Assembly: GCA_958431225.1 (NCBI GenBank)
Contig: OY288107.1
Span: 817,953-881,952 of the forward strand
DNA from: an uncultured Alphaproteobacteria bacterium
GTDB taxonomy: Bacteria > Pseudomonadota > Alphaproteobacteria > Puniceispirillales > UBA1172
Length of the DNA: 64,000 bases
Direction: 5' to 3'
Below, piece after piece: positions 3,258 through 62,424 of the stretch. Position 1 is the first letter of the stretch, and every line of letters starts with the position of its first letter. Below the pieces are notes generated by a model. The model saw only the letters and a program-made list of their open reading frames with translations. It was not told the origin of the DNA and searched no databases. The position numbers and the translations under genes were made by a program.

Positions 3258-3285
3258 ATTCTAACCAACAATAATTTTAGGTCAA
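3258..3285 (-). promoter_or_regulatory. Sigma-70 type promoter of metK
   Basis: On the minus strand TTGACC (3280-3285) and TAGAAT (3258-3263) are 16 bp apart and point to metK. The -35 box abuts the outer end of the palindromic element at 3286, so the element may have been inserted directly behind the promoter. Confidence 0.6.
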
Positions 3286-3637
3286 TGGGGGATTTCACCC
3301 CCCAAACCCCCCGAGCGGGGAACGCCCCGCCGCGTTTTTTTGGCGTATGCCGTAACTGCCCGCGCCTCTTTTTTCAAAAACCGATGATCGCTTGGTAAAT
3401 GTAATTATCATGGGGGCAAGCCCCCATACCCCCATGCGCCCTTTCTTTATGGCAAGTGTTGATTTTTCAAAATTAAAATGAAAGCATCCCCCAAACTCTC
3501 GCCCCGCGAGGAATTTTTACGAATCCATAGCGCTCATCGGTTGTTGAAAAAAGAGGCGCAGTTCGCTGTGGCACGCGCCAATAAATCGCGGCGCGGCGTT
3601 CCGCGCTCGGGGGGTTTGGGGGGCGAAGCGCCCCCAT
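3286..3637. repeat. Full-length palindromic element, L arm-spacer-R arm
   Basis: Left arm 3286-3392 and right arm 3529-3637 are imperfect reverse complements of each other over about 107 bp: outer G/C tract (TGGGGG...CCCCCA), a GC palindrome, GCG...TTTTTGGCGTATGCC, then AACCGATGATCGCT at the inner end. The 136-bp spacer contains GGGGGCAAGCCCCC and GCCCCGCGAGGAATTTTTAC. The same structure is at 55778-56120 and 62081-62424. It fills the gap between metK and lnt; no gene is visible in it. It may also terminate lnt transcription through the GGGGCGAAGCGCCCC hairpin. Confidence 0.9.
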
Positions 3638-42468: not shown

Positions 42469-43062
42469 ATGAGTGCCAAGAAAAACACCAAAGCCAACGG
42501 CGACGCAAGCAAAGCCAAAAAAACCAAAAGCGTCGAGGAAAGCAAACCCCAAGCCGCGCCAACGCCGGCAAAGGACGAGACCCAACAACAAAGGGTCTCC
42601 CCAGACCAGCAAATCGGGTTCCATAACCACTACATCAAGGATCTATCCTTCGAGAACCCGAACGCACCAACCATCTACAGCCCCAGCGAGACAACACCCG
42701 AAGTCTCCGTAGGCTTCAGCGTGGCATCAGCACCAGTCCCAGGACGCGACCGACATTTTGAGGTAGTGCTTAGCGTAAACGCAACAGCAAAACGCGGTGA
42801 CGAGACCATGTTCGTGCTAGAATTAAGCTACGGCGGCGAAGTCTCCGTCGCACCAGAAATGGACGAACGAAACATCAACCCCGTCGTCATGATAGAAGGA
42901 CCAAGATTCCTCTTCCCCTTCGCACGAGCCATCATAGCAACAATATCACGCGAAGGCGGCTTCATGCCAATCAACCTGCAACCTATAGACTTCATAAGAC
43001 TCTATAGAGCAAACCTACAACAAAAAGCAGCCCAACAAGAAAGCAGCGGCACAACTAGCTAA
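42469..43062 (+). CDS. secB: Protein-export chaperone SecB
   Basis: Keeps preproteins unfolded for Sec export. The 197 residues have a Lys/Ala-rich N-terminal extension of about 45 residues absent from ordinary SecB (about 155), then the core: HNHYIKDLSFENPNAP, VVLSVNATAKRGDETMFVLEL, and EGPRFLFPFARAIIATISREGGF (partial). GGAAAGGA precedes the ATG. Coding uses strongly A/C-rich codons toward the 3' end, next to the repeat block at 43108. Confidence 0.95.
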   Translation: MSAKKNTKANGDASKAKKTKSVEESKPQAAPTPAKDETQQQRVSPDQQIGFHNHYIKDLSFENPNAPTIYSPSETTPEVSVGFSVASAPVPGRDRHFEVVLSVNATAKRGDETMFVLELSYGGEVSVAPEMDERNINPVVMIEGPRFLFPFARAIIATISREGGFMPINLQPIDFIRLYRANLQQKAAQQESSGTTS

Positions 43063-43107: not shown

Positions 43108-43321
43108 TGGGGGTTTCACCCCCAAACCCCCGACCACGGAACGCCGTGGAGCGAATTTTTGGCACACGCCACAACAAACTGCGCCCCTTTTTTCAGCAAC
43201 CGATGATCGCCACGGAACGCCGTGGAGCGAATTTTTGGCGTATGCCGTCACGCACGGTGCTTGTTTCTGACAGAACGACTTATTGGGAAAAGATTCGAAA
43301 AATACCTCGCGGGGCGTTTTT
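43108..43321. repeat. L arm, second core and reversed spacer block of the palindromic element
   Basis: 43108-43210 is a complete L arm (outer TGGGGGTTTCACCCCC, palindrome CCACGGAACGCCGTGG, inner AACCGATGATCGC). It is followed directly by a second core (43211-43250) and by 43265-43321 (CTGACAGAACGA..., ending ACCTCGCGGGGCGTTTTT), whose end matches the reversed spacer of the full element and which recurs at 44587-44663. Together with the R arm at 46003-46111 it brackets three accessory genes. No gene is visible in 43063-43400. Confidence 0.85.
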
Positions 43322-43336
43322 ATCACTTTAAAATAA

Positions 43337-43366
43337 TTGACCTACCATTTCAAAAAATGTTAGGCT
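43337..43366 (+). promoter_or_regulatory. Possible promoter of the secreted repeat protein gene
   Basis: TTGACC (43337-43342) and TTAGGC/TAGGCT (43360-43366) are 17-18 bp apart, 35 bp before the ATG at 43401. The -10 box is weak. Confidence 0.35.
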
Positions 43367-43400
43367 TTACCGAACGGATTGGAAATAGGGGCACTTACTC

Positions 43401-43775
43401 ATGAAAAAATCTTTTCTTTTTATTCTCTTTGCATCTCAAATAGTTTGGGCAGGCGTTGCTTATAGTCAATGTCCATATGACCATGATTGTTTGAACAATC
43501 CCTACGGTGCTGGAAGTCCCTATAAACCTGATGGCTTGCTAAATCCCCATAGTGAATACGGCTCGCCGTATTCCAACAAGTCTTGGTCTAATCCATACGC
43601 GACCGATGCCCCCAAAATTTATGATTCCCAAGGCAACTACAAAGGAAGACTTTCAACAAATCCATACGACCCCGATTCAACTTCCAATCCATATGGAAAA
43701 TATGGAAATCCATATAGCCCTGACAGCATTAACAATCCTTATTCAAATGAGGAATTTTACGTTGTTCCCCAATAA
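43401..43775 (+). CDS. Secreted NPYG-repeat protein
   Basis: Small predicted exported protein. Residues 1-22 are a signal peptide (MKKSFLFILFASQIVWAGVA). The mature part is made of five or six degenerate repeats of about 17 residues built on NPYG-x-GSPY-x-PDS (for example LNNPYGAGSPYKPDG, STSNPYGKYGNPYSPDS). I know such repeats from small proteins often found beside mobile DNA, but no function. Codon use is AT-richer than the neighbours. It lies inside the cassette bounded by element arms at 43108 and 46111. Confidence 0.7.
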   Translation: MKKSFLFILFASQIVWAGVAYSQCPYDHDCLNNPYGAGSPYKPDGLLNPHSEYGSPYSNKSWSNPYATDAPKIYDSQGNYKGRLSTNPYDPDSTSNPYGKYGNPYSPDSINNPYSNEEFYVVPQ

Positions 43776-43817
43776 ATAAGAGGCAATTATTGTTTAAGTG
43801 AAGAATGAGGAAATATC

Positions 43818-44522
43818 ATGTCCATCGACAACAGTATAAAAGAGCAGGCTGAAGCCTTTATCAATCAGCGATTCAAGAGTATCCAAGACAATAAAGGCTC
43901 TATGGAACTCCCAACCTTGTTACCCCTTCTTGTCATGCATCTTGTGCCACTTCAAGATTTTGAGGCAGGACGTGAAATTGAGGCTAGTCAAATTAGAAGC
44001 CAAGTTGAGGAGCTGTCACCGCAACATACCGAGTTCCATCTGGTAAATTCGGGTTTTCCTAAGTCAATATTCAACTCGGATGGTTACTGCGTCTATAATG
44101 GCGAAGAAATTTGCCGTGGCTATGCGCAAATTTTTCGTAATGGCGTGATTGAAGCTACCGATGCGAGTTTATTCGGGCATATCAAAATGCCTGATAGATA
44201 TTTTATAGCCGACAGGTTTCCTTATGAATTAATGATTCTGCTCAATAATTATATGCAATTATTGCGCACCCTTGGTGCAAAGACACCTGTCTTATTGCAA
44301 ATCTCATTGATGTCGGTAAAGGGAGTTAAAATGCAAACTAAATTTAGTCGCACATCTGATGTTTCTATACCCTATAAGAAAGATGTATTGAATTTACAAG
44401 CATCTGTCATCACTGAATTTAATGATGACGAAAACTATAGGTCCGATATGAAAAAGCAAATGGATTTACTCTGGAATGCTTTCGGTCTTGAGCGATGCCT
44501 CTATTTCGCTGAAAATGATTGA
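43818..44522 (+). CDS. Orphan protein homologous to the C-terminal half of the AlbA_2 protein
   Basis: No known family that I can name. The 234 residues align from end to end with residues about 160-395 of the gene at 44752: shared AEAFINQRFKSIQ/AKSFVGQRFLSIQ, LVMHLVPL, GYCVYN/GYCIYH, YAQIFRNGVIEAT/YTQIFHNGVVEAT, NNYMQLL/NDYMQGL, LLQISLM/LLQISMM, SVITEF and LLWNAFGLERC/FLWNAFGFERC. Identity looks moderate, so the copy is not recent. It lacks the N-terminal AlbA_2 domain. A ribosome site (ATGAGGAAAT) is present, so it looks like a real gene, not debris. Confidence 0.75.
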   Translation: MSIDNSIKEQAEAFINQRFKSIQDNKGSMELPTLLPLLVMHLVPLQDFEAGREIEASQIRSQVEELSPQHTEFHLVNSGFPKSIFNSDGYCVYNGEEICRGYAQIFRNGVIEATDASLFGHIKMPDRYFIADRFPYELMILLNNYMQLLRTLGAKTPVLLQISLMSVKGVKMQTKFSRTSDVSIPYKKDVLNLQASVITEFNDDENYRSDMKKQMDLLWNAFGLERCLYFAEND

Positions 44523-44544
44523 TAGTATGCCGAGCGCAACTGAA

Positions 44545-44663
44545 GCAGTGGGGGTATGGGGGCTTGCCGTCGGGGGCGGTGCTAGATTCTGACAGGACGA
44601 ACTTATTGGGGGGAATTAAAAATACCTCGCAGGACGCCACCGAACGCGGTGGGGCGTTTTTTT
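44545..44663. repeat. Spacer blocks of the palindromic element between two cargo genes
   Basis: GTGGGGGTATGGGGGCTTGCC at 44551 onward is the reversed spacer block that also follows the next gene (45960-45990); 44587-44663 repeats 43265-43321 (TTCTGACAGGACGA...ACCTCGC) but carries about 19 extra bases (GACGCCACCGAACGCGGT). These blocks occur in this order only inside the cassette, once per cargo unit. Confidence 0.75.
44635..44663 (+). terminator. Terminator after the orphan gene
   Basis: CGCCACCG-AACG-CGGTGG(GG)CG forms a hairpin with a two-base bulge, followed by seven T residues. It was created by the extra bases in this copy of the repeat block and separates the orphan gene from the AlbA_2 gene. 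Confidence 0.6.
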
Positions 44664-44692
44664 GGATTCTTTTGCCAAGGCATAGGTTAAAT

Positions 44693-44721
44693 TTGACATA
44701 AAATAATCACAACACTAAATT
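44693..44721 (+). promoter_or_regulatory. Sigma-70 promoter of the AlbA_2 gene
   Basis: Perfect -35 TTGACA (44693-44698), 17-bp spacer, -10 TAAATT (44716-44721), 30 bp before the start codon. The cargo gene therefore has its own promoter inside the cassette. Confidence 0.6.
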
Positions 44722-44751
44722 GACTTTTTAGGCGAAACATAAGGAAGCATC

Positions 44752-45957
44752 ATGCTACTTGGTAAAAATATTGATGGCGATACAATCAAATCGTTGATTG
44801 ATGGCAAAGTGCGTGAATCGGTGCATCTTGAATTTAAGCGAGAGACTTACGGCAATACGGATGCAGATAAGAAGGAATTTCTCAAAGACATTTCCGCTTT
44901 TGCCAATACTCTTGGTGGGCATCTCATAATCGGGATAGGTGAAAATGAAGGGGGCGCCGCATCGGTTGAGCCAATATTGGAAAGCGTTGACAAAGAATCA
45001 GATCGACTACAAAACATGGCGCGCACTGGCATTGAACCGCCTATCTTGGGCTTAGACATAAAACCTATTGATATCGATGATAAGAATATCATCATCATAC
45101 ATGTCCCCCGCAGTTTCAATCCACCGCATCGCGTCATCTATAAGGGAAGCAACCGATATTATGGGCGGAATTCATCTAGCGTGCATCAGTTATCGCTAGA
45201 AGAATTGCGGCAAGCATTCGGCGAGCGACGCAGCATAGAAGAACGCGCAAAATCTTTTGTCGGTCAGCGATTTTTGAGCATCCAAGCCAATGATGGCATC
45301 ATGCCACTCCCAGAAAAAAATGGGACTCTTGTCATGCATCTTGTGCCTCTTCTCAATTTCGGCATGGAACGTCGTATTGATGTTGTTAAGATTAAAGAAC
45401 TGCAGGAAGCAAAGTCATATTTCAATCGGATAGAGAGTCCCGGCTGGGGATCTCAGAGGATTAATTTGGAGGGTTATTGTATTTATCACTCTGACACTCC
45501 CTGCCAAGCCTATACGCAAATTTTCCATAATGGTGTGGTAGAAGCCACCAGCACGAGTTTATTTAAACGTTATATACACCCAGCCCCAACCAGACGTGAT
45601 AGAAGCAATTGGCGTTTTTTTAGTGGATATGATTTGCCTTTGAGTCTAATCGAAGCAATCAACGATTATATGCAAGGACTGCATGCGCTCGAAATTATGC
45701 CGCCAATTCTACTGCAAATTTCAATGATGGGGATAAAGGGGATTGAAATGGGTATCAAATTAGATGATCCATATCATGTCCCCCCATCCTATGAGCGTGA
45801 TGTGTTGCATCTGCCATCATCTGTCATTACTGAATTTCGCGCTGACGAAGACTACGAATCGGTGATGGCTGAGCAAATGCATTTTCTTTGGAATGCTTTT
45901 GGTTTTGAACGATGCAATCTTTTCAATGAAAATGATGAATGGGCTCCCCCCAACTGA
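44752..45957 (+). CDS. AlbA_2 (Schlafen-type) domain protein
   Basis: Two-part protein of 401 residues. Residues about 12-150 are an AlbA_2/Schlafen-like putative nucleic-acid-binding domain (ESVHLEFKRETYG, FLKDISAFANTLGGHLIIGIGE, VPRSFNPPHRV, YGRNSSSVHQLSLEELRQAF). The rest (about 160-395) is the domain also present alone in the upstream gene. AlbA_2 proteins occur as helicase-like regulators and in defence islands; a defence role here is inference from location and not shown. AAGGAAG precedes the ATG. The gene is AT-richer than its housekeeping neighbours and ends 46 bp before an R arm. Confidence 0.82.
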   Translation: MLLGKNIDGDTIKSLIDGKVRESVHLEFKRETYGNTDADKKEFLKDISAFANTLGGHLIIGIGENEGGAASVEPILESVDKESDRLQNMARTGIEPPILGLDIKPIDIDDKNIIIIHVPRSFNPPHRVIYKGSNRYYGRNSSSVHQLSLEELRQAFGERRSIEERAKSFVGQRFLSIQANDGIMPLPEKNGTLVMHLVPLLNFGMERRIDVVKIKELQEAKSYFNRIESPGWGSQRINLEGYCIYHSDTPCQAYTQIFHNGVVEATSTSLFKRYIHPAPTRRDRSNWRFFSGYDLPLSLIEAINDYMQGLHALEIMPPILLQISMMGIKGIEMGIKLDDPYHVPPSYERDVLHLPSSVITEFRADEDYESVMAEQMHFLWNAFGFERCNLFNENDEWAPPN

Positions 45958-45959
45958 TG

Positions 45960-46111
45960 TAGTGGGGGTATGGGGGCTTGCCCCCATTATAAAATCCACC
46001 CCAAGCGCTCATCGGTCGCTGAAAAAGGGGCGCAAAGTGCCGTGGCATAAACCAAAAATTCGCTCCACGGCGCTCCGTGGTTGGGGGGTTTGGGGGGCGA
46101 AGCGCCCCCAT
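45960..46111. repeat. Reversed spacer block and R arm of the palindromic element
   Basis: GTGGGGGTATGGGGGCTTGC... at 45960-45990 is the reversed spacer block; 46003-46111 is a complete R arm (AGCGCTCATCGGTCGCTG..., CAAAAATTCGC, palindrome CCACGGCGCTCCGTGG, outer GGGGCGAAGCGCCCCCA). It closes the cassette opened by the L arm at 43108 and lies between convergent genes. Confidence 0.88.
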
Positions 46112-46114
46112 AAA

Positions 46115-46804
46115 CTAATACTTAGACCAAATAGCATTCTTAATCTGCGTCATAAATTCCGCGTGTGCTTTCTGTTCATCTTCGCTGATAGGAAATTCGC
46201 GCAATTTGATGGGTGCGGTAGGTTTTTGCATCACGTGTTCTTCGGGTGCGGGTGTGGTTGTGGGCGTTGTGTCGTCTGCCATGAGGCTAAGTTGTCTGCC
46301 GCCGATGAGTTCTATATAGACTTCTGCGAGCAGATATACGTCTATGAGTGCGCCGTGGAGTTGGCGTTTTGCGGTATCTATATCAAAGCGGCGGCAGAGT
46401 GCGTCTAGGCTTGCGGGGCTACCGGGGAATTTTTTGCGCGCCATCAATAATGTGTCTTTGGTGCGTGCCATATTGATGGCTGTGCGCTCAATTCGCTTCA
46501 ATTCGGCATTGATGAATCCGACATCAAATTCTGCGTTATGGATAATGAGTGGGTCGTCGCCGATAAAGGCGAGGAATTCGTCGGCGATATCGGCGAAGAG
46601 GGGTTCGTGTTTGAGGCTTTCGGCGGTCATGCCGTGGACTTTGCTGGCTTCTGCATCAATGTCGCGTTCGGGGTTGATGCGCACATGGTAGTGGGTACCG
46701 GTGGGGATATAGTCATTGAGTTCGAGCGCGCCGATTTCAATGATTCGGTGGCCTTCTTCGTGTTTGAGTCCGGTGGTTTCGGTATCCAAAACAATTTCAC
46801 GCAT
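46115..46804 (-). CDS. dnaQ: DNA polymerase III epsilon subunit (proofreading)
   Basis: 3'-5' exonuclease of the replicative polymerase. The ATG 46802-46804 (229 residues, MREIVLDTETTGL) follows AAAGGAAA; the longer frame adds 19 residues. Exo I DTETTG near residue 6, Exo II HNAEFDVGFIN near 95 and Exo III HGALIDVYLLAEVY near 150 give the DEDDh set. The tail after about 170 carries TPTTTPAP and the polymerase-binding region. It overlaps coaE by 8 bp; dnaQ-coaE-maf is the usual alphaproteobacterial order. Confidence 0.96.
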   Translation of the reverse strand: MREIVLDTETTGLKHEEGHRIIEIGALELNDYIPTGTHYHVRINPERDIDAEASKVHGMTAESLKHEPLFADIADEFLAFIGDDPLIIHNAEFDVGFINAELKRIERTAINMARTKDTLLMARKKFPGSPASLDALCRRFDIDTAKRQLHGALIDVYLLAEVYIELIGGRQLSLMADDTTPTTTPAPEEHVMQKPTAPIKLREFPISEDEQKAHAEFMTQIKNAIWSKY

Positions 46805-47465
46805 GGGGGTTTCCTTTGGGGTTTGTGCCTCTGAGGGTAATGTCGTTGAGCATTTGTGCAATATACCATTTCATAGCAGTGATGCCAAAGCTTGTGGGGA
46901 TAATATAATCGGCGCGTTGGCATTTTTCGGCGTTGGGCATTTGGGCGGCGATGATTTGGTTAAAACGCGCTTCGTCCATATTTGGTCGAGCTAATGCGCG
47001 TTTTTTCTGCAGGTAGGGCGAGGTTGAAACCACTGCCACATAGTCGCATTCATTATCGGCGTTGGTCTCAAAAAGGAGAGGAATATCATAGACAATAATG
47101 GGGACAATAACGGGGTGATTCGCGCGCGCCATTTTTTCCGTCCAATGCTCGCGTTGTTGGCGGAGGCGCGGGTGGATGATGGCTTCAAGGGCGCGGCGTT
47201 TTTTTGTATCGCCAAAAATTTCCGCCCCGAGTAATTGGCGGTCAATCGCGCCTTTATTTTTGGTGGCGGCGGCGGCGGCGGGGAATTGTGCCAGCACGGC
47301 GGCGATAATGTCGGCATCTTGTGCCAGCATCGCATGCACAGCGGCATCGGCATCATACACGGGCAGGGCTAGCGTGCGGAGATGCGCCGCCACGGTAGAT
47401 TTACCCATAGCCACCGCGCCGGTCAGCCCCAATTTTATGGTATCAGTTTTCATATCAGTTTCCAT
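46797..47465 (-). CDS. coaE: Dephospho-CoA kinase
   Basis: Last step of coenzyme A synthesis. The 222 residues carry the P-loop GLTGAVAMGKSTV near 13-25, YDADAAVHAML and the LID/substrate region VYDIPLLFET. The N-terminus METDMKTD is an in-frame duplication; the second Met (47453) may be the true start. A strong G6/C6 hairpin (GGGGGGCGTCCCCCC) lies immediately before the ATG and inside the maf 3' end, and may hide or replace the ribosome site. Confidence 0.94.
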   Translation of the reverse strand: METDMKTDTIKLGLTGAVAMGKSTVAAHLRTLALPVYDADAAVHAMLAQDADIIAAVLAQFPAAAAATKNKGAIDRQLLGAEIFGDTKKRRALEAIIHPRLRQQREHWTEKMARANHPVIVPIIVYDIPLLFETNADNECDYVAVVSTSPYLQKKRALARPNMDEARFNQIIAAQMPNAEKCQRADYIIPTSFGITAMKWYIAQMLNDITLRGTNPKGNPHA

Positions 47466-50912: not shown

Positions 50913-52172
50913 ATGAATCTGCAAGACCTGAAGAAAAAAACCCCCGCCGAACTCCTATCCTACGCCGAAGAGCTAGAGATCGAAAACGCCTCTACCTTAC
51001 GCAAACAGGATATGATGTTCGCCATCCTAAAACAGCTCGCCGAGGACGACGTGCCGATATACGGCGGCGGCGTCCTTGAGGTGCTAGCCGATGGCTTCGG
51101 CTTCCTGCGCTCGCCCGAATCAAATTACCTCCCCGGCCCCGACGACATCTACGTCTCCCCCAGCCAAGTGCGCCGCTTCAGCCTCCGCACCGGCGACACC
51201 GTGGACGGACTCATCCGCGCCCCCCAAGAAGGCGAACGCTATTTCGCCCTCCTAAAAGTAGAACAAGTCAATTTTGAAGACCCATCAGCCGTACGCCAAC
51301 GCATCAATTTTGATAACCTAACCCCCCTATATCCCCAAACCCGCATCAAGTTTGAACAACCCTACACCCCGGAAAATAAAGACTATATCCCCCGCGTCAT
51401 AGATTTAGTCTCCCCCATGGGCAAAGGCCAAAGAGGACTCATAGTCGCCCCCCCCCGCACCGGCAAAACCATGATGCTCCAATCCATAGCCCACGCCATC
51501 TCCATCAACCACCCCGAAGTCTATCTCATCGTGCTACTAATAGACGAACGCCCCGAAGAAGTCACCGACATGCAACGTTCGGTCAATGGCGAAGTCATCT
51601 CCTCAACCTTTGACGAGCCAGCAGCCCGCCACGTCCAAGTCACCGACATGGTCATAGAAAAAGCCAAACGCCTAGTAGAACACAAACGCGACGTAGTCAT
51701 CCTCCTAGACAGCATAACCCGCCTAGCCCGCGCCTATAACACCGTCGTCCCATCCTCAGGCAAAGTGCTAACCGGCGGCGTAGACGCCAACGCCCTCCAA
51801 CGCCCCAAACGCTTTTTCGGCGCGGCAAGAAACGTAGAAGAAGGCGGCTCCCTAACCATCATAGCAACCGCCCTAATAGAAACCGGAAGCCGCATGGATG
51901 AAGTCATATTCGAAGAATTCAAAGGAACCGGAAACTCCGAAGTAATCCTAGACCGCAAACTATCAGACAAACGCGTATTCCCAGCAATAGACATAACACG
52001 CTCAGGAACAAGAAAAGAAGAACTGCTAATAGAAAAAGACACACTAGCAAAAATGTGGGTATTACGCCGAATTCTCATGCCAATGGGACAAGTAGACGGA
52101 ATGGAATTCCTACTAGACAAACTAAAACAAAGCAAAAGCAACGAAGATTTTTTCCAATCAATGAACCAATAG
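50913..52172 (+). CDS. rho: Transcription termination factor Rho
   Basis: Hexameric RNA-dependent ATPase that ends transcription. From ATG 50913 it has 419 residues: [20 protein letters not shown], the cold-shock-like RNA-binding domain ([20 protein letters not shown]), Walker [10 protein letters not shown], Walker [17 protein letters not shown], and the C-terminal [24 protein letters not shown] (20 of these). The codons become strongly A/C-rich in the last 300 bp, next to the element arm at 52173. Confidence 0.97.
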
Positions 52173-52249
52173 CACGAAACGCCGTGCCGCGAATTTTTGG
52201 TTTATGCCATAACGCCCTGCGCCAATTTCTTCACCAACCGATGATCGCT
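52173..52249. repeat. L arm (inner part) at the left edge of the nuclease cassette
   Basis: Starts right after the rho stop with CGAAACGCCGTGCCGCGAATTT, the inner palindrome and core of the L arm, and ends AACCGATGATCGCTT at the inner boundary. The outer G/C tract is missing. The nuclease ribosome site begins 15 bp further on. Confidence 0.85.
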
Positions 52250-52281
52250 TGATTGAAATAAAAAAATGGAGGACTTTACCT

Positions 52282-53220
52282 ATGACTACGCAAAAATCTT
52301 ACTATCGGGTCAGGCTAGGGAAGGGGCATAAGAATGCCGATAAATGCTATCAGGGCGAGTTTTTTGGCGTACTTGATGCTGGCATTTTTGGTGATCTTTC
52401 CTATGATCTTCCTGAAGATCGGAATGTTTTTATTGAAAAATTCCGCAGTAAGTTTCTGGAACGTAACCCAACTAAAACAAAAGGTGCAGCTACTCGTGCC
52501 TGTGGCACAAATTGGAATGTCTCTAAGGGAATAAAGACAGGGGATATAGTGCTTTGTCCGAACGGAAAGGGCAAATATTGGATTGGCGAAGTCATTAGCG
52601 ATTATTTGTATGAAGCCGATAGTTTCTTCCCCCATCAGCGTAAAGTCGCTTGGTTTCCTGCACTTGTTGCACATGCTGATATGTCATTGGGACTTAAAAG
52701 GTCGGCTGGCTCTATTAAGACAGATGTCAATATTACAAAATATGCCGAAGAGATTGAGAAATTCATTTCTGGCGTATCGCCATCTCAACTGAACGCGAGC
52801 GATGAATCTGTTGAAGATGCTTCCGAGTTTGCTTTGGAGGAGCATCTTGAGGATTTTTTAGTTAAAAATTGGGCATCAACCGAACTTGGGAAGAAATATG
52901 ACATTTACGAAGAAGATGGTGAGATTATCGGACAGCAATTTCAAACTGATACGGGACCCATCGATATTCTTGCAATTAGCAAAGACAAAAAAGAGTTTTT
53001 GGTTATTGAATTAAAAAAAGGTCAAGCAAGCGATAAAGTAGTTGGGCAGATTTTGAGATACATGGATTATGTTCAAGAAGCAGAGGCAATGCGTGGAGAA
53101 AAAGTGCGCGGTGCCATTATTGCATTTGAAGACAATAAAGGTCTTGAACGCGCCCTTAGTGCCGTTGGAAACATAGATTTCTACGAATATAAAGTCAATT
53201 TCAGCCTATCCAAAAAATAA
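52282..53220 (+). CDS. NucS/Mrr-like PD-(D/E)xK nuclease with N-terminal binding domain
   Basis: Predicted DNA nuclease, 312 residues from the ATG at 52282 (GGAGG ten bases upstream). The C-terminal domain (about 180-312) has the NucS/DUF91-type core: LEEHLEDFLVKNW, Asp228 in TGPIDILAIS, Glu243 and Lys245 in FLVIELKKGQ, then GQILRYMDYV. The N-terminal 130 residues include GDIVLCPNGKGKYWIGEVI and HQRKVAWF, a PUA/EVE-like pattern often found in nucleases that read modified or mismatched DNA. Substrate is unknown. Codon use is AT-richer than in rho and ogt. It fits tightly between an L arm (15 bp) and an R arm (7 bp). Confidence 0.85.
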   Translation: MTTQKSYYRVRLGKGHKNADKCYQGEFFGVLDAGIFGDLSYDLPEDRNVFIEKFRSKFLERNPTKTKGAATRACGTNWNVSKGIKTGDIVLCPNGKGKYWIGEVISDYLYEADSFFPHQRKVAWFPALVAHADMSLGLKRSAGSIKTDVNITKYAEEIEKFISGVSPSQLNASDESVEDASEFALEEHLEDFLVKNWASTELGKKYDIYEEDGEIIGQQFQTDTGPIDILAISKDKKEFLVIELKKGQASDKVVGQILRYMDYVQEAEAMRGEKVRGAIIAFEDNKGLERALSAVGNIDFYEYKVNFSLSKK

Positions 53221-53227
53221 CCACTAA

Positions 53228-53338
53228 AGCGCGCTCATCATTCAAAAAAGAAAAGGGCGCAGAGTGCCGTGGCATAAACCAAAAACCCGCCCCGCCGCGC
53301 TCGGCGGTCGGGGGGTTTGGGGGGCGAAGCGCCCCCAT
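53228..53338. repeat. R arm at the right edge of the nuclease cassette
   Basis: Begins AGCGCGCTCATCATTC seven bases after the nuclease stop, then GGGCGCAGAGTGCCGTGGCATAAACC-type sequence, palindrome CGCCGCGCTCGGCGG, and ends with GGGGCGAAGCGCCCCCAT just before ogt. It is the mirror of the L arm at 52173. Confidence 0.88.
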
Positions 53339-53905: not shown

Positions 53906-54145
53906 CGCCGAACGCCACGGAACGCCGTGGAGCGAATTTTTGGCGTATGCCACAACATCCCGCGCCTCTTATATGTTGATGGCGATGAGCGCGCTTTAAT
54001 TTTTACCAAGAGGGCTTGCCCCCATTTTTTACGAACCATAGCGCTCATCGGTTGCTAAAAAAGAGGCACAGCGCGCTATGGCATAAACCAAAAATTCGCT
54101 CCACGGCGTTCCGTGGTCGGGGGGTGTGGGGGGCGAAGCGCCCCC
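53906..54145. repeat. Internally deleted palindromic element between ogt and mnmE
   Basis: L arm without its outer tract (53906 to about 53998), a shortened spacer keeping GGGCTTGCCCCCA and TTTTTTACGAACCATAGCG, and a complete R arm (about 54034-54145, ending GGGGCGAAGCGCCCCC). It is bracketed by the 76-bp direct repeats. Apart from these repeats, no gene is visible in 53838-54232. Confidence 0.85.
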
Positions 54146-54245: not shown

Positions 54246-55597
54246 ATGAGACCATTTTTGCGTTAGGGACTGCGGGCGGTCGTGGTGGCATTCAGGTGAT
54301 TCGCATTTCGGGTGCGGGTGCGGGGGGTGCTTTGCGCGCGCTTGCAGGGGGTATCCCGCCCCCGCGCATGCTGCGTTTTACGGCGATTCGTGATGGGGAC
54401 GGCGCGTTGTTGGATCGTGGCATGGCGGTATGGTTCCCGCACCCGGCCTCGCCGACCGGGGAGGATTATGCGGAGTTGCATCTGCACGGCGCCCCGCAAA
54501 TTGCGCGTTTGGTTTTGGGGGCATTAGGGGCGTTGGAGGGCTTGCGTTTGGCGGAGGCAGGGGAGTTCACCCGCCGCGCCTTTCTCAACGGCAAAATGAG
54601 CCTAGACCAAGCCGAAGCCCTAGCCGATGTGATAGACGCCGACACCATCACCCAACACCGCCAAGCCATGGCACGCCTAGACGCCCCCTTGAGCCAAATC
54701 ACCGAAACATGGCGCGCACAACTCATAAACATGATGGCACAACTAGAAGCAGTGCTAGATTTCGCAGACGAAGAAATCCCGCAAAATATCCTAGACACAT
54801 TAAACCGCGAACTAAAAGAAATAACAAAAGAAATCAACGATTTAATAAAGGAAAACAAACGCGGACCCATCATAAGAGACGGCATCAACATAGTGCTATT
54901 AGGAAAACCAAATGCCGGCAAATCCACCTTCCTAAACGCCCTAGCCGGACGCGAAGAAGCCATCGTATCCGCCGAAGCCGGCACCACCCGCGACATCATA
55001 AACGTCTCCCTAGACATCCAAGGCTACGCCGTCCACATAAAAGACACAGCAGGACTCCGCCCAACCCAAAGCGCCCCAAAAAATGCTATAGAACAAGAAG
55101 GCGTCCGCCGCGCCACCAAAGCCGCCCAACAAGCCGACATCGTCGTAGCACTCATAGAAGCCAACACCCCAAACCCAAAAACCGCGCTAAACGAACTCCT
55201 AAAACAAGCAGAAATCACCAAAAAACCACCCATAATCATGCCAGTAATCAGCAAAGCAGACCTGCAAAAAAACCAAACAACACCAAAAAATTGGACAAAA
55301 ATATCCGCAAAAAACAACACAGGACTAGAAAAATGGCAACAAAAACTCAGCGAAATCATGGAAACCCTAATAGAAACCAACGAATCAGCACTAATCAGCC
55401 GCCAAAGACACCAAAACCTACTAAAAGAATGCCAAACCCGACTCACACAAGCACAAAAAATAAACCTAAATAAAAACCCAGAACTAACAGCAGAAGAACT
55501 AAGAACCGCCGCCGCCGCCTTGGGCAGAATCTCCGGAAGAATAGACGTGGAAGACGTACTAGACGCTATTTTTAAGTCGTTCTGCATCGGCAAGTAA
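54233..55597 (+). CDS. mnmE: tRNA modification GTPase MnmE
   Basis: With MnmG makes the cmnm5U34 modification of tRNA. The 454 residues show the folate-binding N-domain (ETIFALGTAGGRGGIQVIRIS is its opening, 20 shown as TIFALGTAGGRGGIQVIRIS), the helical domain with LHLHGAP and EFTRRAFLNGKMSLDQAEAL, and the G domain: GKPNAGKS 224-231, TTRD 251-254, DTAG 271-274 and G4 SKAD where NKxD is usual. The C-terminus FCIGK carries the catalytic Cys. Codon choice changes from G/T-rich to A/C-rich near 54570. Confidence 0.96.
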   Translation: MLGQDETIFALGTAGGRGGIQVIRISGAGAGGALRALAGGIPPPRMLRFTAIRDGDGALLDRGMAVWFPHPASPTGEDYAELHLHGAPQIARLVLGALGALEGLRLAEAGEFTRRAFLNGKMSLDQAEALADVIDADTITQHRQAMARLDAPLSQITETWRAQLINMMAQLEAVLDFADEEIPQNILDTLNRELKEITKEINDLIKENKRGPIIRDGINIVLLGKPNAGKSTFLNALAGREEAIVSAEAGTTRDIINVSLDIQGYAVHIKDTAGLRPTQSAPKNAIEQEGVRRATKAAQQADIVVALIEANTPNPKTALNELLKQAEITKKPPIIMPVISKADLQKNQTTPKNWTKISAKNNTGLEKWQQKLSEIMETLIETNESALISRQRHQNLLKECQTRLTQAQKINLNKNPELTAEELRTAAAALGRISGRIDVEDVLDAIFKSFCIGK

Positions 55598-55598
55598 A

Positions 55599-55614
55599 TG
55601 TTTCACGTGAAACA
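55599..55614. promoter_or_regulatory. parS site 1 (ParB-binding)
   Basis: Perfect TGTTTCACGTGAAACA, two bases after the mnmE stop. This is the canonical bacterial parS palindrome. Confidence 0.93.
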
Positions 55615-55628
55615 TTTTTTATTTTTTA

Positions 55629-55734
55629 TGGGGGATTTCATCCCCCAAACCCCCTGACCGCCGAGCGCGGCGGAGCGAATTTTTGGCGTATGCCATAACT
55701 GCCCGCGCCTCTTTTTCAAAAATCGATGATCGCT
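55629..55734. repeat. Solo L arm of the palindromic element
   Basis: Complete L arm from TGGGGGATTTCATCCCCC to CGATGATCGCT, with the palindrome CGCCGAGCGCGGCG. No R arm follows before the next full element; parS site 2 lies in between. Confidence 0.85.
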
Positions 55735-55749
55735 ATGGATTTGTAAAAA

Positions 55750-55765
55750 TGTTTCACGTGAAACA
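55750..55765. promoter_or_regulatory. parS site 2 (ParB-binding)
   Basis: Perfect TGTTTCACGTGAAACA, placed between a solo L arm and a full element in the mnmE-mnmG gap. The flanks (TAAAAATG...AATTTTAT) resemble those of site 1, so the region may be a tandem duplication of parS plus element. Confidence 0.93.
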
Positions 55766-55777
55766 ATTTTATTTTTA

Positions 55778-56120
55778 TGGGGGTTTCACCCCCCAAACCC
55801 CCTGAGCGCGGAACGCCGCGCCGCGAATTTTTGGTGCTTGCCACGGCACACTGCGCCCTTTTTTCAACAACCGATGATCGCTTGATATAATTTTATGATG
55901 GGGGCAAGCCCCCATACCCCCTTGCGCCCCTTCTTTATGGCAAGTTTTGATTTTTCAAAATTAAAATGAAAGATCCCCCAAACACGCGCCCCGCGAGGAA
56001 TTTTTACGAATCCATAGCGATCATCGGTTGTAAAAGAATGGGGCGCAGTTCGTTACGGCATAAACCAAAAATTCGCGGCGCGGCGTTCCGCGCTCGGGGG
56101 TTTGGGGGTGAAACCCCCAT
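55778..56120. repeat. Full-length palindromic element upstream of mnmG
   Basis: 343 bp: L arm 55778 to about 55886, spacer with GGGGGCAAGCCCCC and GCCCCGCGAGGAATTTTTAC, and R arm from about 56018 (AGCGATCATCGGTTG) to the outer GGGTGAAACCCCCAT. Very close to the copies at 3286 and 62081. No gene is visible in 55598-56186 apart from parS sites and these repeats. Confidence 0.9.
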
Positions 56121-56133
56121 AAAAAATAAAAAA

Positions 56134-56149
56134 TGTTTCACGTGAAACA
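56134..56149. promoter_or_regulatory. parS site 3 (ParB-binding)
   Basis: Perfect TGTTTCACGTGAAACA, 38 bp before the chosen mnmG start. An ATG in it (56133) opens the same frame as mnmG, giving MFHVKH. Confidence 0.93.
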
Positions 56150-56186
56150 TTTGACCCAAGACAAATATCCAAGTATGCTCATATCC

Positions 56187-59100
56187 ATGGCAAATTCTTT
56201 TGATATTATTGTTGTAGGTGGTGGTCATGCGGGTGTTGAGGCGGCGGCTGCTGCGGCTCGTATGGGTTCGTGTGTTGGTTTGCTTACGATGTCTCGTGCT
56301 AGCATTGGTGAGATGTCGTGTAATCCGGCGATTGGTGGTTTGGGCAAGGGTCATTTGGTTCGTGAGATTGATGCTTTGGATGGATTGATGGGTCGTGCGA
56401 TTGATGTTTCGGGGATTCAGTTTCGCATGTTGAATCGGTCGCGTGGTGCGGCGGTTCAGGGGCCGCGTGCGCAGGCGGATCGTGGTCTTTACAAGGCGGC
56501 GATTCAGCAATTTTTGGCGGAGATTCCGGGGTTGCACATTATTGAGGCGATGATTGGTGATATTATGATTGAGGGGGGTTGTTTTGCTGGGTTTATTGGT
56601 GAGGATGGTGTGGAATATCGTGCTGGTGCGGCGGTTTTGACCACGGGGACGTTTTTGGGCGGTGTGATTCATTTGGGTGCGAAGCGTGAGGCGGCGGGTC
56701 GTTTTGGTGAGGCGCCGTCGAATCGTTTAGCGGCGCGGTTAAGGGGTGCGGATTTGGGTTTAGCGATTGGTCGTTTGAAGACGGGGACACCGGCGCGGCT
56801 TGATGGTGATACGATTGCGTGGGCGCGTTTGGAGCATCAGCCGGCGGATGCGGTGCCGGTGCCGTTTTCCACTTTGACGGAGGCGATTGCGGTGCCGCAG
56901 ATTGCGTGTGGCATTACGCGCACGAATGCGGAGACGCATCGGATTATCCGCGAATCGCTGCATTTATCGGCGGTTTATTCGGGGCAGATTGGGGGGCAGG
57001 GTCCGCGTTATTGTCCGTCTATTGAGGATAAGGTGGTGCGTTTTCCGGAGCGGACGTCGCATCAGATTTTCTTGGAGCCAGAGGGGTTAGATGATACGAC
57101 AATTTATCCGAATGGCATTTCCACGAGCCTACCTGAATCTGTGCAGGATGCGTTGATTGCGTCCATTGAAGGTCTTGAAAACACGCGCATTTTGCGTTAT
57201 GGCTATGCGATTGAGTATGATTATATTGACCCGCGCGGTTTGACACGAGGGCTAGAGGTGAAAGCATTGCCGGGGCTATTTTTAGCGGGACAAATTAACG
57301 GCACCACCGGCTACGAAGAAGCCGCCGCGCAAGGGTTGATGGCCGGCATCAACGCAGCATTGGCAGCTGGAAGTGATGCGCGGGAGCGTGATTCGCGGGA
57401 GCGTGATTGGGGCGGTGATTCGGCAGGTGATAGGGGCGGGCGTGATTTGACTGATGATGGGGGCAACGATTCAGCAAGTGATTCGCAAGGTGCTACAGCA
57501 GACACCAAAAATGCGCTCCACGGCGCTCCGTGGTCGGCTGATGATGGGGGCAGTGATTCGGGCGATGACTTGCGGGGTGATAATTGGGGCGGTGATTCGG
57601 CAGGTGAGGCGCAGGGTGATTCGGCATCCGCCAAAAATGCGCTCCACGGCGCTCCGTGGTCGGCTGATGATGGGGGCAGTGATTCGGGCGATGACTTGCG
57701 GGGTGATTGGGGTGGTGATTCGGCAGGTGATTCGCGGGGTGATTCGGCATCCGCCAAAAATGCGCTCCACGGCGCTCGGCGGTCGACTGATGATGGGGGC
57801 GGTGATTCGGGTGGGCGTGATTTGACTGATGATTGGGGCGGTGATTCGCAGGGTGATTCTGCTGGCGATAGGTGGCGTGATTCGGGCGGTGATTGGGGGC
57901 GTGATTCGGCTAGTGATTCGGGTGATGATTCGCAGGATGCTACAACATCCGCCAAAAATGCGCCCCGCCGCGCTCGGCGGTCGCGGGGTGATTCGGCTAG
58001 TGATTGGGGGCGTGATTTGGCTGATGATGGGGGCGGTGATTCAGCAAGTGATTCGCCGGATGTTGCGGCATCCGCCAAAAATGCGCCCCGCCGCGTTCGG
58101 CGGTTGGCTGATGATTGGGGCGGTGATTCGGCAAGTGAGGCGGGGGATGTTGCGGCATCCGCCAAAAATGCGCTCCACGGCGCTCCGTGGTCGCAAGGTG
58201 ATTCGGCTAGTGATTGGGATGATGATTTGACAGGTGATTCGCGGGGTGATTCGGCATCTGCCAATAAACCGCCCCGCCGCGCTCATCGGTTGCTGAAAAG
58301 AGAGGCGCAGGGTGCTGTGGCATCCACCAAAAATGCGCTCCACGGCGCTCCGTGGTCGCGGCGCGGCGTTCCGCGCTCGGCTGATGATGGGGGCGATGAT
58401 TCGGGCGATGACTTGCGGGGTGATAATTGGGGCGGTGATTCGGCAAGTGAGGTGCGGGGTGATTCGGCTAGTGAGTGGGGTGGTGATTCGCATGGTGCTG
58501 TGGCATCCGCCAAAAATGCGCTCCACGGCGCTCCGTGGTCGGCAGGTGATTCGCGGGGTGATTCGGCTAGTGAGTGGGGTGGTGATTCGCATGGTGCTGT
58601 GGCATCCGCCAAAAATGCGCTCCACGGCGCTCCGTGGTCGGCAGGTGATTCGCGGGGTGATTCGGCATCCGCCAATAAACCGCCCCGCCGCGTTCATCGG
58701 TTGCTGAAAAGAGAGGCGCAGGGTGATTCGGCTGGCGATTGGTGGCGTGATTCGGCTGGCGATTGGGGGCGTGATTCATCTGGTGATTCGCAGGGTGATT
58801 CGGCATCCGCCAAAAATACGCGGCGCGGCGTTCCGCGCTCGGCTGATGATGGGGGCGATGATTTAGCAAGTGATTCGCAAGATGTTGCGGCATCCGCCAA
58901 AAATGCGCTCCACGGCGCTCCGTGGCGCGCTCGGCGGTGCGTTCTCGACCGTGCTTCTGCTTATATTGGGGTTATGATTGATGATTTGGTTACTCGTGGT
59001 GCTCCGGAGCCTTATCGTATGTTTACGTCGCGGGCGGAGTATCGGTTGTTGTTGCGGGCGGATAATGCTGATCAGCGTTTGACGGATTTGGGTATAGACA

Positions 59101-59597
59101 TTGGCGTGGTTGGTGGGGTTCGTGCGCGGGTTTGGGCGGAGAAGCGGGGGCATTTGGCGCGTGCTGAGGCTTTGTTGGACCATTATCGTTTGACGCCATC
59201 GCAATTAGCCAAGGTTGGTATTTCGGCTAGTCGTGATGGGCGGGCGCAATCGCCTCGGAAATTACTGGCGCGTGATGATGTGCGGATTCGGCATTTATTG
59301 CCTTTATGTCCGCAATTTGCGGAGATTCCGGAGAAATATCATGCGCAGATTGAGACTGATTGTCGTTATGCGGCTTATTTGGGGCGGCAGCGGGCTGATA
59401 TTGAGGCGATGCGTCGTGATGAGGCTTTGGCGATTCCATCGGCGTTGAATTATCGGCAAATTGGTGGGTTATCTGCGGAGAGTGTGGATATTTTGGTGCG
59501 GCATCGTCCGGAGACGATTGCGCATGCGAGTCGGTTGCCGGGGTTGACACCGGCGGCGTTATTGGTGCTGATTCGCCATATTCGGCGTGCCGCTTAA
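56187..59597 (+). CDS. mnmG: tRNA modification enzyme MnmG with a 525-codon repeat insertion
   Basis: FAD-dependent partner of MnmE. The start at 56187 ([20 protein letters not shown]) matches the family; the frame is open from 56133 inside parS. Length is 1136 residues against about 620-630. Residues 1-395 are ordinary MnmG ([30 protein letters not shown] part, [31 protein letters not shown]) and 921-1136 are the ordinary rest ([31 protein letters not shown], and the GidA C-domain). Residues 396-920 replace a linker of about 12 residues and consist of repeats only. No stop or frameshift breaks the frame, so a full-length protein is possible. Codons outside the insert are G/T-rich. Confidence 0.95.
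57372..58946 (+). repeat. In-frame repeat insertion inside mnmG
   Basis: 1575 bp (525 codons) made of two interleaved parts: a 9-12 bp unit around GGTGATTCGGC/GATTGGGGGC coding for [10 protein letters not shown]-type Asp/Ser/Gly/Trp repeats, and about 12 copies of the R-arm core of the palindromic element (for example 57504-57536, 57631-57662, 57754-57785, 57952-57983, 58075-58106, 58162-58193, 58510-58541, 58609-58640, 58810-58842, 58897-58936) coding for [12 protein letters not shown] or [12 protein letters not shown]. Two copies (58261-58380, 58672-58721) extend into longer R-arm sequence and add [17 protein letters not shown]. Confidence 0.93.
58462..58659 (+). repeat. Exact 99-bp tandem duplication in the mnmG insertion
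   Basis: 58462-58560 and 58561-58659 are, as far as I can read, identical; each codes for a 33-residue unit beginning [20 protein letters not shown]. The identity points to a recent unequal exchange or slippage. Confidence 0.85.
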
Positions 59598-62072: not shown

Positions 62073-62080
62073 TTTTTTTA

Positions 62081-62424
62081 TGGGGGATTTCATCCCCCAA
62101 ACCCCCTGAGCGGGGAACGCCCCGCGGCGATTTTTTGGCGTATGCCACAATGCACCGCACCCCTCTTTTCAAAAACCGATGATCGCTTGATATAATTTTA
62201 TGATGGGGGCAAGCCCCCATACCCCCATGCGCCCTTTCTTTATGGCAAGTGTTGATTTTTCCAAATTAAAATGAAAGCATCCCCCAAACACGCGCCCCGC
62301 GAGGAATTTTTACGAATCCATAGCGATCATCGGTCTTTGGAAAGAGGGCGCGGTGTGCCGTGGCAAGCACCAAAAATCCGCTCCGCCGCGTTCGGCGGTC
62401 GGGGGTGTGGGGGTGAAACCCCCG
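62081..62424. repeat. Full-length palindromic element between parB and holA
   Basis: 344 bp: L arm 62081 to about 62188, spacer with TTGATATAATTTTATGATGGGGGCAAG-type sequence, GCCCCGCGAGGAATTTTTAC, and R arm from about 62321 to 62424 ending GGGTGAAACCCCCG. It lies between two convergent genes and fills the whole 62073-62433 gap; no gene is visible in it. Its spacer is nearly identical to that at 55778-56120. Confidence 0.9.

What the first reader, a model, noticed from the sequence alone, without database searches (positions are those of the whole stretch)
43108..46111. Three-gene cassette with element spacer blocks repeated between cargo units
L arm (43108), spacer block ending CCTCGCGGGGCG (43265-43321), cargo 1 (secreted NPYG protein and orphan domain protein), spacer block GTGGGGGTATGGGGGCTTGC (44551), again the CCTCGC block (44587-44663), cargo 2 (AlbA_2 protein), again the GTGGGGGTATGG block (45960), R arm (46003-46111). 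In empty elements the same two blocks sit side by side, about 65 bp apart, in the reversed spacer. Cargo therefore entered between the two blocks, and the unit block-cargo-block was repeated in tandem, like a growing cassette array.
Basis: partly seen in the sequence, partly recalled or inferred. Interest (0 to 1): 0.88.

Follow-up and report, generated by a model that had tools for sequence, protein, structure and literature searches.

The report
Inverted-repeat elements carrying phage-defence gene cassettes
The three genes sit inside a 3-kb insert with inverted-repeat ends between two housekeeping genes; about 20 gene-less elements with the same ends dot one-fifth of this chromosome, and ten other places carry foreign genes between such ends, mostly anti-phage defence genes, so the repeats look like a carrier for swapping in defence genes.

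Summary
Confirmed: a 3.0-kb insertion (43108-46111) with inverted arms splits secB and dnaQ, which are adjacent and convergent in every relative where both could be placed (22 genomes). Two homologous units, blkA-cargo-blkB, lie in tandem inside it; both blocks recur in about 20 gene-less elements. The cassette picture is only partly right. Cargo between blkA and blkB is clean only here. Across the genome the constant is the inverted arms; what lies between is variable. Eleven arm pairs (this one included) bracket genes: two S02 candidate nucleases, a PD-T4-3 protein, a TmtA-like ATPase, an EcoRI-type methylase + GmrSD/HNH + AbiTii cluster, two further methylase loci, and here a Schlafen/AlbA_2 protein with a tandem paralogue of its C-terminal domain. 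Sixteen cargo genes have GC 35-47%, against 50-59% for 50 window genes (no overlap); 7/16 hit PADLOC models at E<=1e-40 against 0/50. No element holds a transposase; two transposase families tested are absent from the genome, and the arms are absent from congeners. Best explanation: mobile insertion cassettes (transposase-less elements moved in trans), specialised in defence cargo and sharing ends with their empty MITE forms. Movement, the enzyme and strain variation were not shown.

The parts
43108..43216 (+). L arm (outer hairpin TGGGGGTTTCACCCCC, stem CCACGGAACGCCGTGG + AATTTTTGG, inner part ..CCGATGATCGC)
   Evidence: inverted match to R arm; arm-HMM hit 861059-861162
43212..43270 (+). second, truncated L arm (arm positions 33-91)
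   Evidence: arm-HMM hit 861163-861221
43243..43316 (+). 5' block of unit 1 with blkA (CCTCGCGGGGCG 43305-43316); variant also seen in the empty element at genome 1157281-1157560
   Evidence: 79% to 44565-44636
43401..43775 (+). cargo 1a: 124-aa NPYG-rich protein with a signal-peptide-like start; no family hit; GC 40%
43818..44522 (+). cargo 1b: 234-aa stand-alone copy of the C-terminal domain of the AlbA_2 protein; relative fused to a TIR domain on a Planococcus plasmid
44548..44567 (+). blkB of unit 1 (GTGGGGGTATGGGGGCTTGC)
44565..44652 (+). 5' block of unit 2 with blkA (CCTCGCAGGACG 44625-44636) and a terminator-like hairpin 44637-44652
44752..45957 (+). cargo 2: 401-aa Schlafen/AlbA_2 protein (AlbA_2 at residues 22-147) with the shared C-terminal domain
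   Evidence: PF04326 E=1e-19; PDB 9ylu E=2e-5; PDC-S50 E=5e-6
45962..45981 (+). blkB of unit 2
46005..46111 (-). R arm
52171..53337 (+). second gene-bearing element of the window, between rho and ogt: 323-aa PDC-S02 nuclease (52249-53220) bracketed by arms
3285..3636 (-). empty element (arms, blkA, SEG, blkB)
53915..54145 (+). empty element between ogt and mnmE, degenerate spacer
55777..56120 (-). empty element (arms, blkA, SEG, blkB)
62080..62423 (-). empty element (arms, blkA, SEG, blkB)

Best explanation
The 43108-46111 segment is a mobile insertion cassette: two inverted element ends with passenger genes and no transposase, inserted between secB and dnaQ. It belongs to a family in which about 20 gene-less copies (280-350 bp, MITE-like) and ten other gene-bearing copies share the same ends, and the passengers are mostly phage-defence genes of foreign composition. 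Shown: the arms, the insertion, foreign GC, defence-type cargo, absence of a transposase in the elements. Inferred: the ends are (or were) recognised by a transposase supplied in trans, elements pick up and spread cargo as ends-plus-passenger units, and arm hairpins followed by T-runs help insulate neighbours so that inserts are tolerated, mostly in convergent gaps. Within this element the unit blkA-cargo-blkB was duplicated (or captured twice) and the first copy had its AlbA_2 nuclease domain replaced by an NPYG gene, leaving the C-terminal domain as a separate gene. The AlbA_2 protein most likely acts as a Schlafen-type RNA nuclease effector whose C-terminal domain senses or regulates (inferred).
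For: secB and dnaQ adjacent in all 22 relatives where both were placed, 3.05 kb apart here; rho-ogt and ogt-mnmE, tight in G006 and G007, also hold an element here. 101 arm hits in the stretches read; an arm-core pattern gives 93 genome hits against 2 for the reversed control. Eleven arm pairs bracket genes. Cargo families: TmtA-like 4e-53, PDC-S02 1e-157 and 1e-126 (its only two copies in the genome), PDC-S42 2e-67, PD-T4-3 1e-89, EcoRI methylase 4e-131, GmrSD/HNH 2e-117, AbiTii 3e-27, two more methylases. PADLOC E<=1e-40: 7/16 cargo against 0/50 window proteins, p=1.5e-5; E<=1e-20: 8/16 against 3/50, p=2.5e-4. GC: no overlap with 50 window genes, p=1e-9. Gene-bearing elements in convergent gaps 6/8 against 27/148, p=7e-4. 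AlbA_2: PF04326, bacterial Schlafen-like structure 9ylu, and the same C-terminal domain next to TIR on a Planococcus plasmid.
Against: No transposase identified: Y1 and IS630-type DDE_3 are absent, other families untested. No consistent target-site duplication. Several arms are truncated (808, 870, 757, 1074 loci), so some copies may no longer move. The C-terminal domains are 44-47% identical while the blkB copies are 94% identical, so a simple recent duplication does not fit. 'Defence' rests on HMM names, some only candidate families. The control genes lie in one housekeeping-rich stretch near the probable origin. Three gene-bearing elements carry proteins with no clear defence link.
Confidence: 0.62

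Rival explanations
1. Landing pads: empty MITE-like elements came first and foreign defence genes later entered them by illegitimate or repeat-mediated homologous recombination after DNA uptake. The elements do not move with cargo; they are tolerated insertion sites.
For: Empty and filled elements share ends; the blkA-blkB interval is variable (0, 47-65 bp or genes); arms and blocks retained differ from locus to locus; no transposase found; filled ones sit mostly in convergent gaps.
Against: Arms differ by 10-25% between copies, poor substrates for homologous recombination; at several loci no element DNA but the outer arms is left, so the cargo edge is not at one entry point.
Confidence: 0.22
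2. A dedicated cassette system: an unidentified recombinase recognises the arms or blocks and inserts and exchanges defence units there, as in an integron but with inverted-repeat units.
For: Tandem units with more conserved blocks here; repeated L half-ends, and four tandem R half-ends with blkB, at 976461-977186; strong defence bias.
Against: Only one element has clean block-cargo-block units; no integrase lies in any element; no attC-like array was seen.
Confidence: 0.1
3. Chance bracketing: independent MITE insertions on either side of pre-existing foreign genes in a repeat-rich region.
For: Arms are numerous and clustered in about 450 kb.
Against: Each flank is a half element in inward orientation, not two whole elements; inward pairs read here hold only spacer or AT-rich genes, while outward pairs flank housekeeping genes; at secB/dnaQ and rho/ogt the arms lie within about 50 bp of both neighbours.
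Confidence: 0.05

Closest known systems
Mobile insertion cassettes (MIC231 of Bacillus cereus, described in PMC3913671; mic elements with qnrD or qnrS2, PMC3913671 and PMC5444012)
   Same: Passenger gene between two inverted repeats, no transposase in the element; proposed mobilisation in trans.
   Different: Here many copies in one genome, long (about 108 bp) hairpin-rich arms, empty MITE forms with the same ends, defence cargo, tandem units in one element; no matching IS and no clear target-site duplication found.
Bacterial MITEs and Rickettsia palindromic elements (review PMC10969869)
   Same: Short multicopy palindromic intergenic repeats; arm repeats also occur in frame inside mnmG, as RPEs do in genes.
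   Different: MITEs are usually gene-less; the review text contains none of the words phage, restriction, passenger or cargo.
Neisseria minimal mobile elements (from memory; papers found were not read)
   Same: Alternative small cassettes, often restriction-modification genes, between conserved housekeeping genes.
   Different: Those are defined by conserved flanking genes and transformation, not by shared inverted-repeat arms.
Sedentary chromosomal integrons with defence cassettes (papers listed; from memory)
   Same: Arrays of small, self-contained adaptive or defence genes in a shared DNA frame.
   Different: Direct attC repeats at one locus with an IntI integrase; here inverted arms, dispersed loci, no integrase in the elements.

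Membership tests
Mobile insertion cassette (MIC) | passenger gene(s) bracketed by terminal inverted repeats | tested here: met
   eleven gene-bearing elements
Mobile insertion cassette (MIC) | no transposase gene inside | tested here: met
   cargo proteins searched against Pfam, PADLOC, PHROGs, NCBIfam:
Mobile insertion cassette (MIC) | target-site duplication | tested here: inconclusive
   T-rich/A-rich flanks with AT or TA at many ends, no consistent duplication
Mobile insertion cassette (MIC) | mobilised in trans by an IS with the same ends | not testable with these tools
   needs an IS match or an assay; Y1_Tnp and DDE_3 absent from the genome, other transposase families not tested
MITE (empty copies) | short, multicopy, terminal inverted repeats, non-coding, intergenic | tested here: met
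   19 aligned copies of 227-352 bp, intergenic
Integron | direct attC array next to an IntI integrase | tested here: not met
   inverted arms, dispersed loci, no integrase in the element
Schlafen / AlbA_2 (PF04326) | domain score above the curated cut-off | tested here: met
   71.7 bits against 25.3
PADLOC PDC-S50 candidate defence protein | full-length match to the model | tested here: inconclusive
   only the N-terminal domain matches, E=5e-6

The most novel reading that the evidence does not exclude
A genome-wide defence-cassette carrier: one species-specific family of transposase-less inverted-repeat elements, spread around the probable replication origin, that acquires, tandem-duplicates and recombines phage-defence modules, with empty elements serving as vacant slots.
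Probability: 0.25. Interest if true: 0.88.

Novelty: new variant of a known kind. Interest (0 to 1): 0.72.

Why it matters
Defence genes are usually explained by islands, prophages, plasmids and integrons. Here single defence genes are scattered among housekeeping genes, each inside the same small inverted-repeat frame. If these frames move or trade cargo, it is a simple route for turnover of bacterial immunity that island-based surveys would miss, and the repeat ends become a search handle for new defence genes, such as the unassigned 124-, 172-, 207- and 225-aa cargo proteins.

Tried and rejected
Structure of the AlbA_2 protein from a two-row alignment: pLDDT 32, unusable, no fold search made. 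Exact 24-mer of blkB in genome contigs and viral contigs: 7 stretches in unrelated taxa without our arms, judged convergent hairpins. IS200/605 or RAYT (Y1) and IS630 (DDE_3) as movers: absent. R-M-like genes at 937639-941221 near a lone arm at 942443: not bracketed, so excluded. Promoter and terminator scan of the element: numbers no better than shuffles. Organism not identified.

Full report
The observation. The arms, the two blocks and the three genes are real. The 5' blocks match at 79% over 75 bp (E=3e-10) and the blkB copies at 30/32 (E=1e-9).

It is an insertion. secB (42469-43062, +) and dnaQ (46115-46861, -) converge. In all 22 relatives in which both genes could be placed they are neighbours with a gap of a few tens to a little over a hundred bases; here the gap is 3.05 kb. 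Two further sites in the same block, rho-ogt and ogt-mnmE, are tight in a congener (G006) and in a complete genome of the same family (G007), and hold an element here; the first carries a nuclease gene, the second is empty.

The element family. A profile of the arms finds 101 hits in the stretches read, mostly as inward pairs. An arm-core pattern gives 93 genome-wide hits against 2 for the reversed pattern, most of them between 705 and 1158 kb of a 2.33-Mb chromosome. Nineteen closely spaced pairs (227-352 bp) were aligned. Most read L arm, blkA (CTATGGATTCGTAAAAATTCCTCGCGGGGCGCGTG), a 47-65-bp segment or nothing, blkB (GTGGGGGTATGGGGGCTTGCCCCCAT), R arm. The segment is flanked by a 9-bp direct repeat GGGCGCRTG. 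The arms are not found in six congeners or 34 other relatives.

Gene-bearing elements. Besides the finding, ten inward pairs enclose genes: 119209-120155 (PD-T4-3 / LEM-3 GIY-YIG protein, arms more diverged), 703262-705795 (PDC-S42 protein, a DNA methylase and a possible partner ORF), 713069-713987 (172-aa membrane protein), 715930-719168 (EcoRI-type methylase, GmrSD/HNH nuclease, AbiTii), 757843-761252 (TmtA-like sacsin ATPase), 808535-809715 and 870123-871289 (PDC-S02 nucleases, 65% identical, the only two in the genome), 962017-964095 (methylase and putative restriction enzyme), 976461-978789 (SepA-family protein, with four tandem R half-ends) and 1074784-1075936 (207-aa protein). Outward-facing neighbours flank housekeeping genes or tRNAs.

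Statistics. GC of sixteen cargo genes is 34.7-47.4%; of 50 other window genes 49.9-58.9%. At PADLOC E<=1e-40, 7/16 against 0/50 (p=1.5e-5); at 1e-20, 8/16 against 3/50, the three controls being matches of the DnaQ/endonuclease-III kind (inferred from family names). Eight gene-bearing elements were classed by position: six lie in convergent gaps against 27/148 for all neighbouring ORF pairs in the stretches (p=7e-4); empty ones do not differ clearly.

The cargo of the finding. Gene 3 is a Schlafen/AlbA_2 protein (PF04326, E=1e-19) and matches a solved protein named CbCash (9ylu, E=2e-5) and, with a profile, vertebrate Schlafens. Its 230-residue C-terminal domain follows AlbA_2 in scattered Alphaproteobacteria (7 of 384 other genomes hold the domain; one as two stand-alone genes) and is annotated with a TIR domain on a Planococcus plasmid. 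Gene 2 is that domain alone, 44-47% identical. Gene 1 is an NPYG-rich protein with a signal-peptide-like start and no family. Units 1 and 2 align from the start of the shared domain to blkB and at the 5' block, but not across NPYG/AlbA_2: a tandem unit whose effector part was exchanged, or two related captures.

How it probably works. Shown: the frame, the insertion, foreign and defence-biased content, no transposase inside. Inferred: ends recognised in trans; cargo carried as a unit; arms as terminators. The mover is unknown; Y1 and DDE_3 transposases are absent and no clean target duplication is seen. By anatomy it is closest to mobile insertion cassettes (PMC3913671); a 2024 MITE review does not mention phage, restriction or cargo.

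Limits. The genome-wide arm list is not exhaustive: 40 of 79 first-look candidates were scored. Only one genome of the species is held. PADLOC candidate families (PDC) are predictions. That the origin lies in this window (hemE/ppsR, parS-like sites, GC-skew turn) is inference.

Noticed in passing
56133-59597 (repeat array 57478-58925): mnmG/gidA is a 1154-aa ORF: Pfam GIDA domains at 24-412 and 997-1146 are separated by an in-frame insertion of about 500 residues made of arm-derived repeats (..[17 protein letters not shown]..), like Rickettsia palindromic elements but as a long array.
   Followed up: partly
about 55580-55780: parS-like TGTTTCACGTGAAACA occurs on both sides of a solo L arm, next to mnmE and mnmG; an element sits between two parS-like sites near the probable origin.
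   Followed up: no
whole genome G000, 705-1158 kb: Most arm hits lie in about one-fifth of the chromosome, around the probable replication origin.
   Followed up: partly
1163-1227: Tandem 21-bp hairpin units CCACGGAACGCCGTGGAGCGA without the rest of the arm; the same unit is iterated inside several arms.
   Followed up: no
L016:10462-11187 (genome 976461-977186): Four tandem copies of the R half-end with blkB, beside a SepA-family gene; gaps between them carry short repeats with TTTACATATG.
   Followed up: no
L077:4260-6245: An exact blkB 24-mer flanks, in inverse orientation, a reverse-transcriptase-like gene in Desulfobacterales HSG16; arms unrelated, probably a convergent hairpin.
   Followed up: partly
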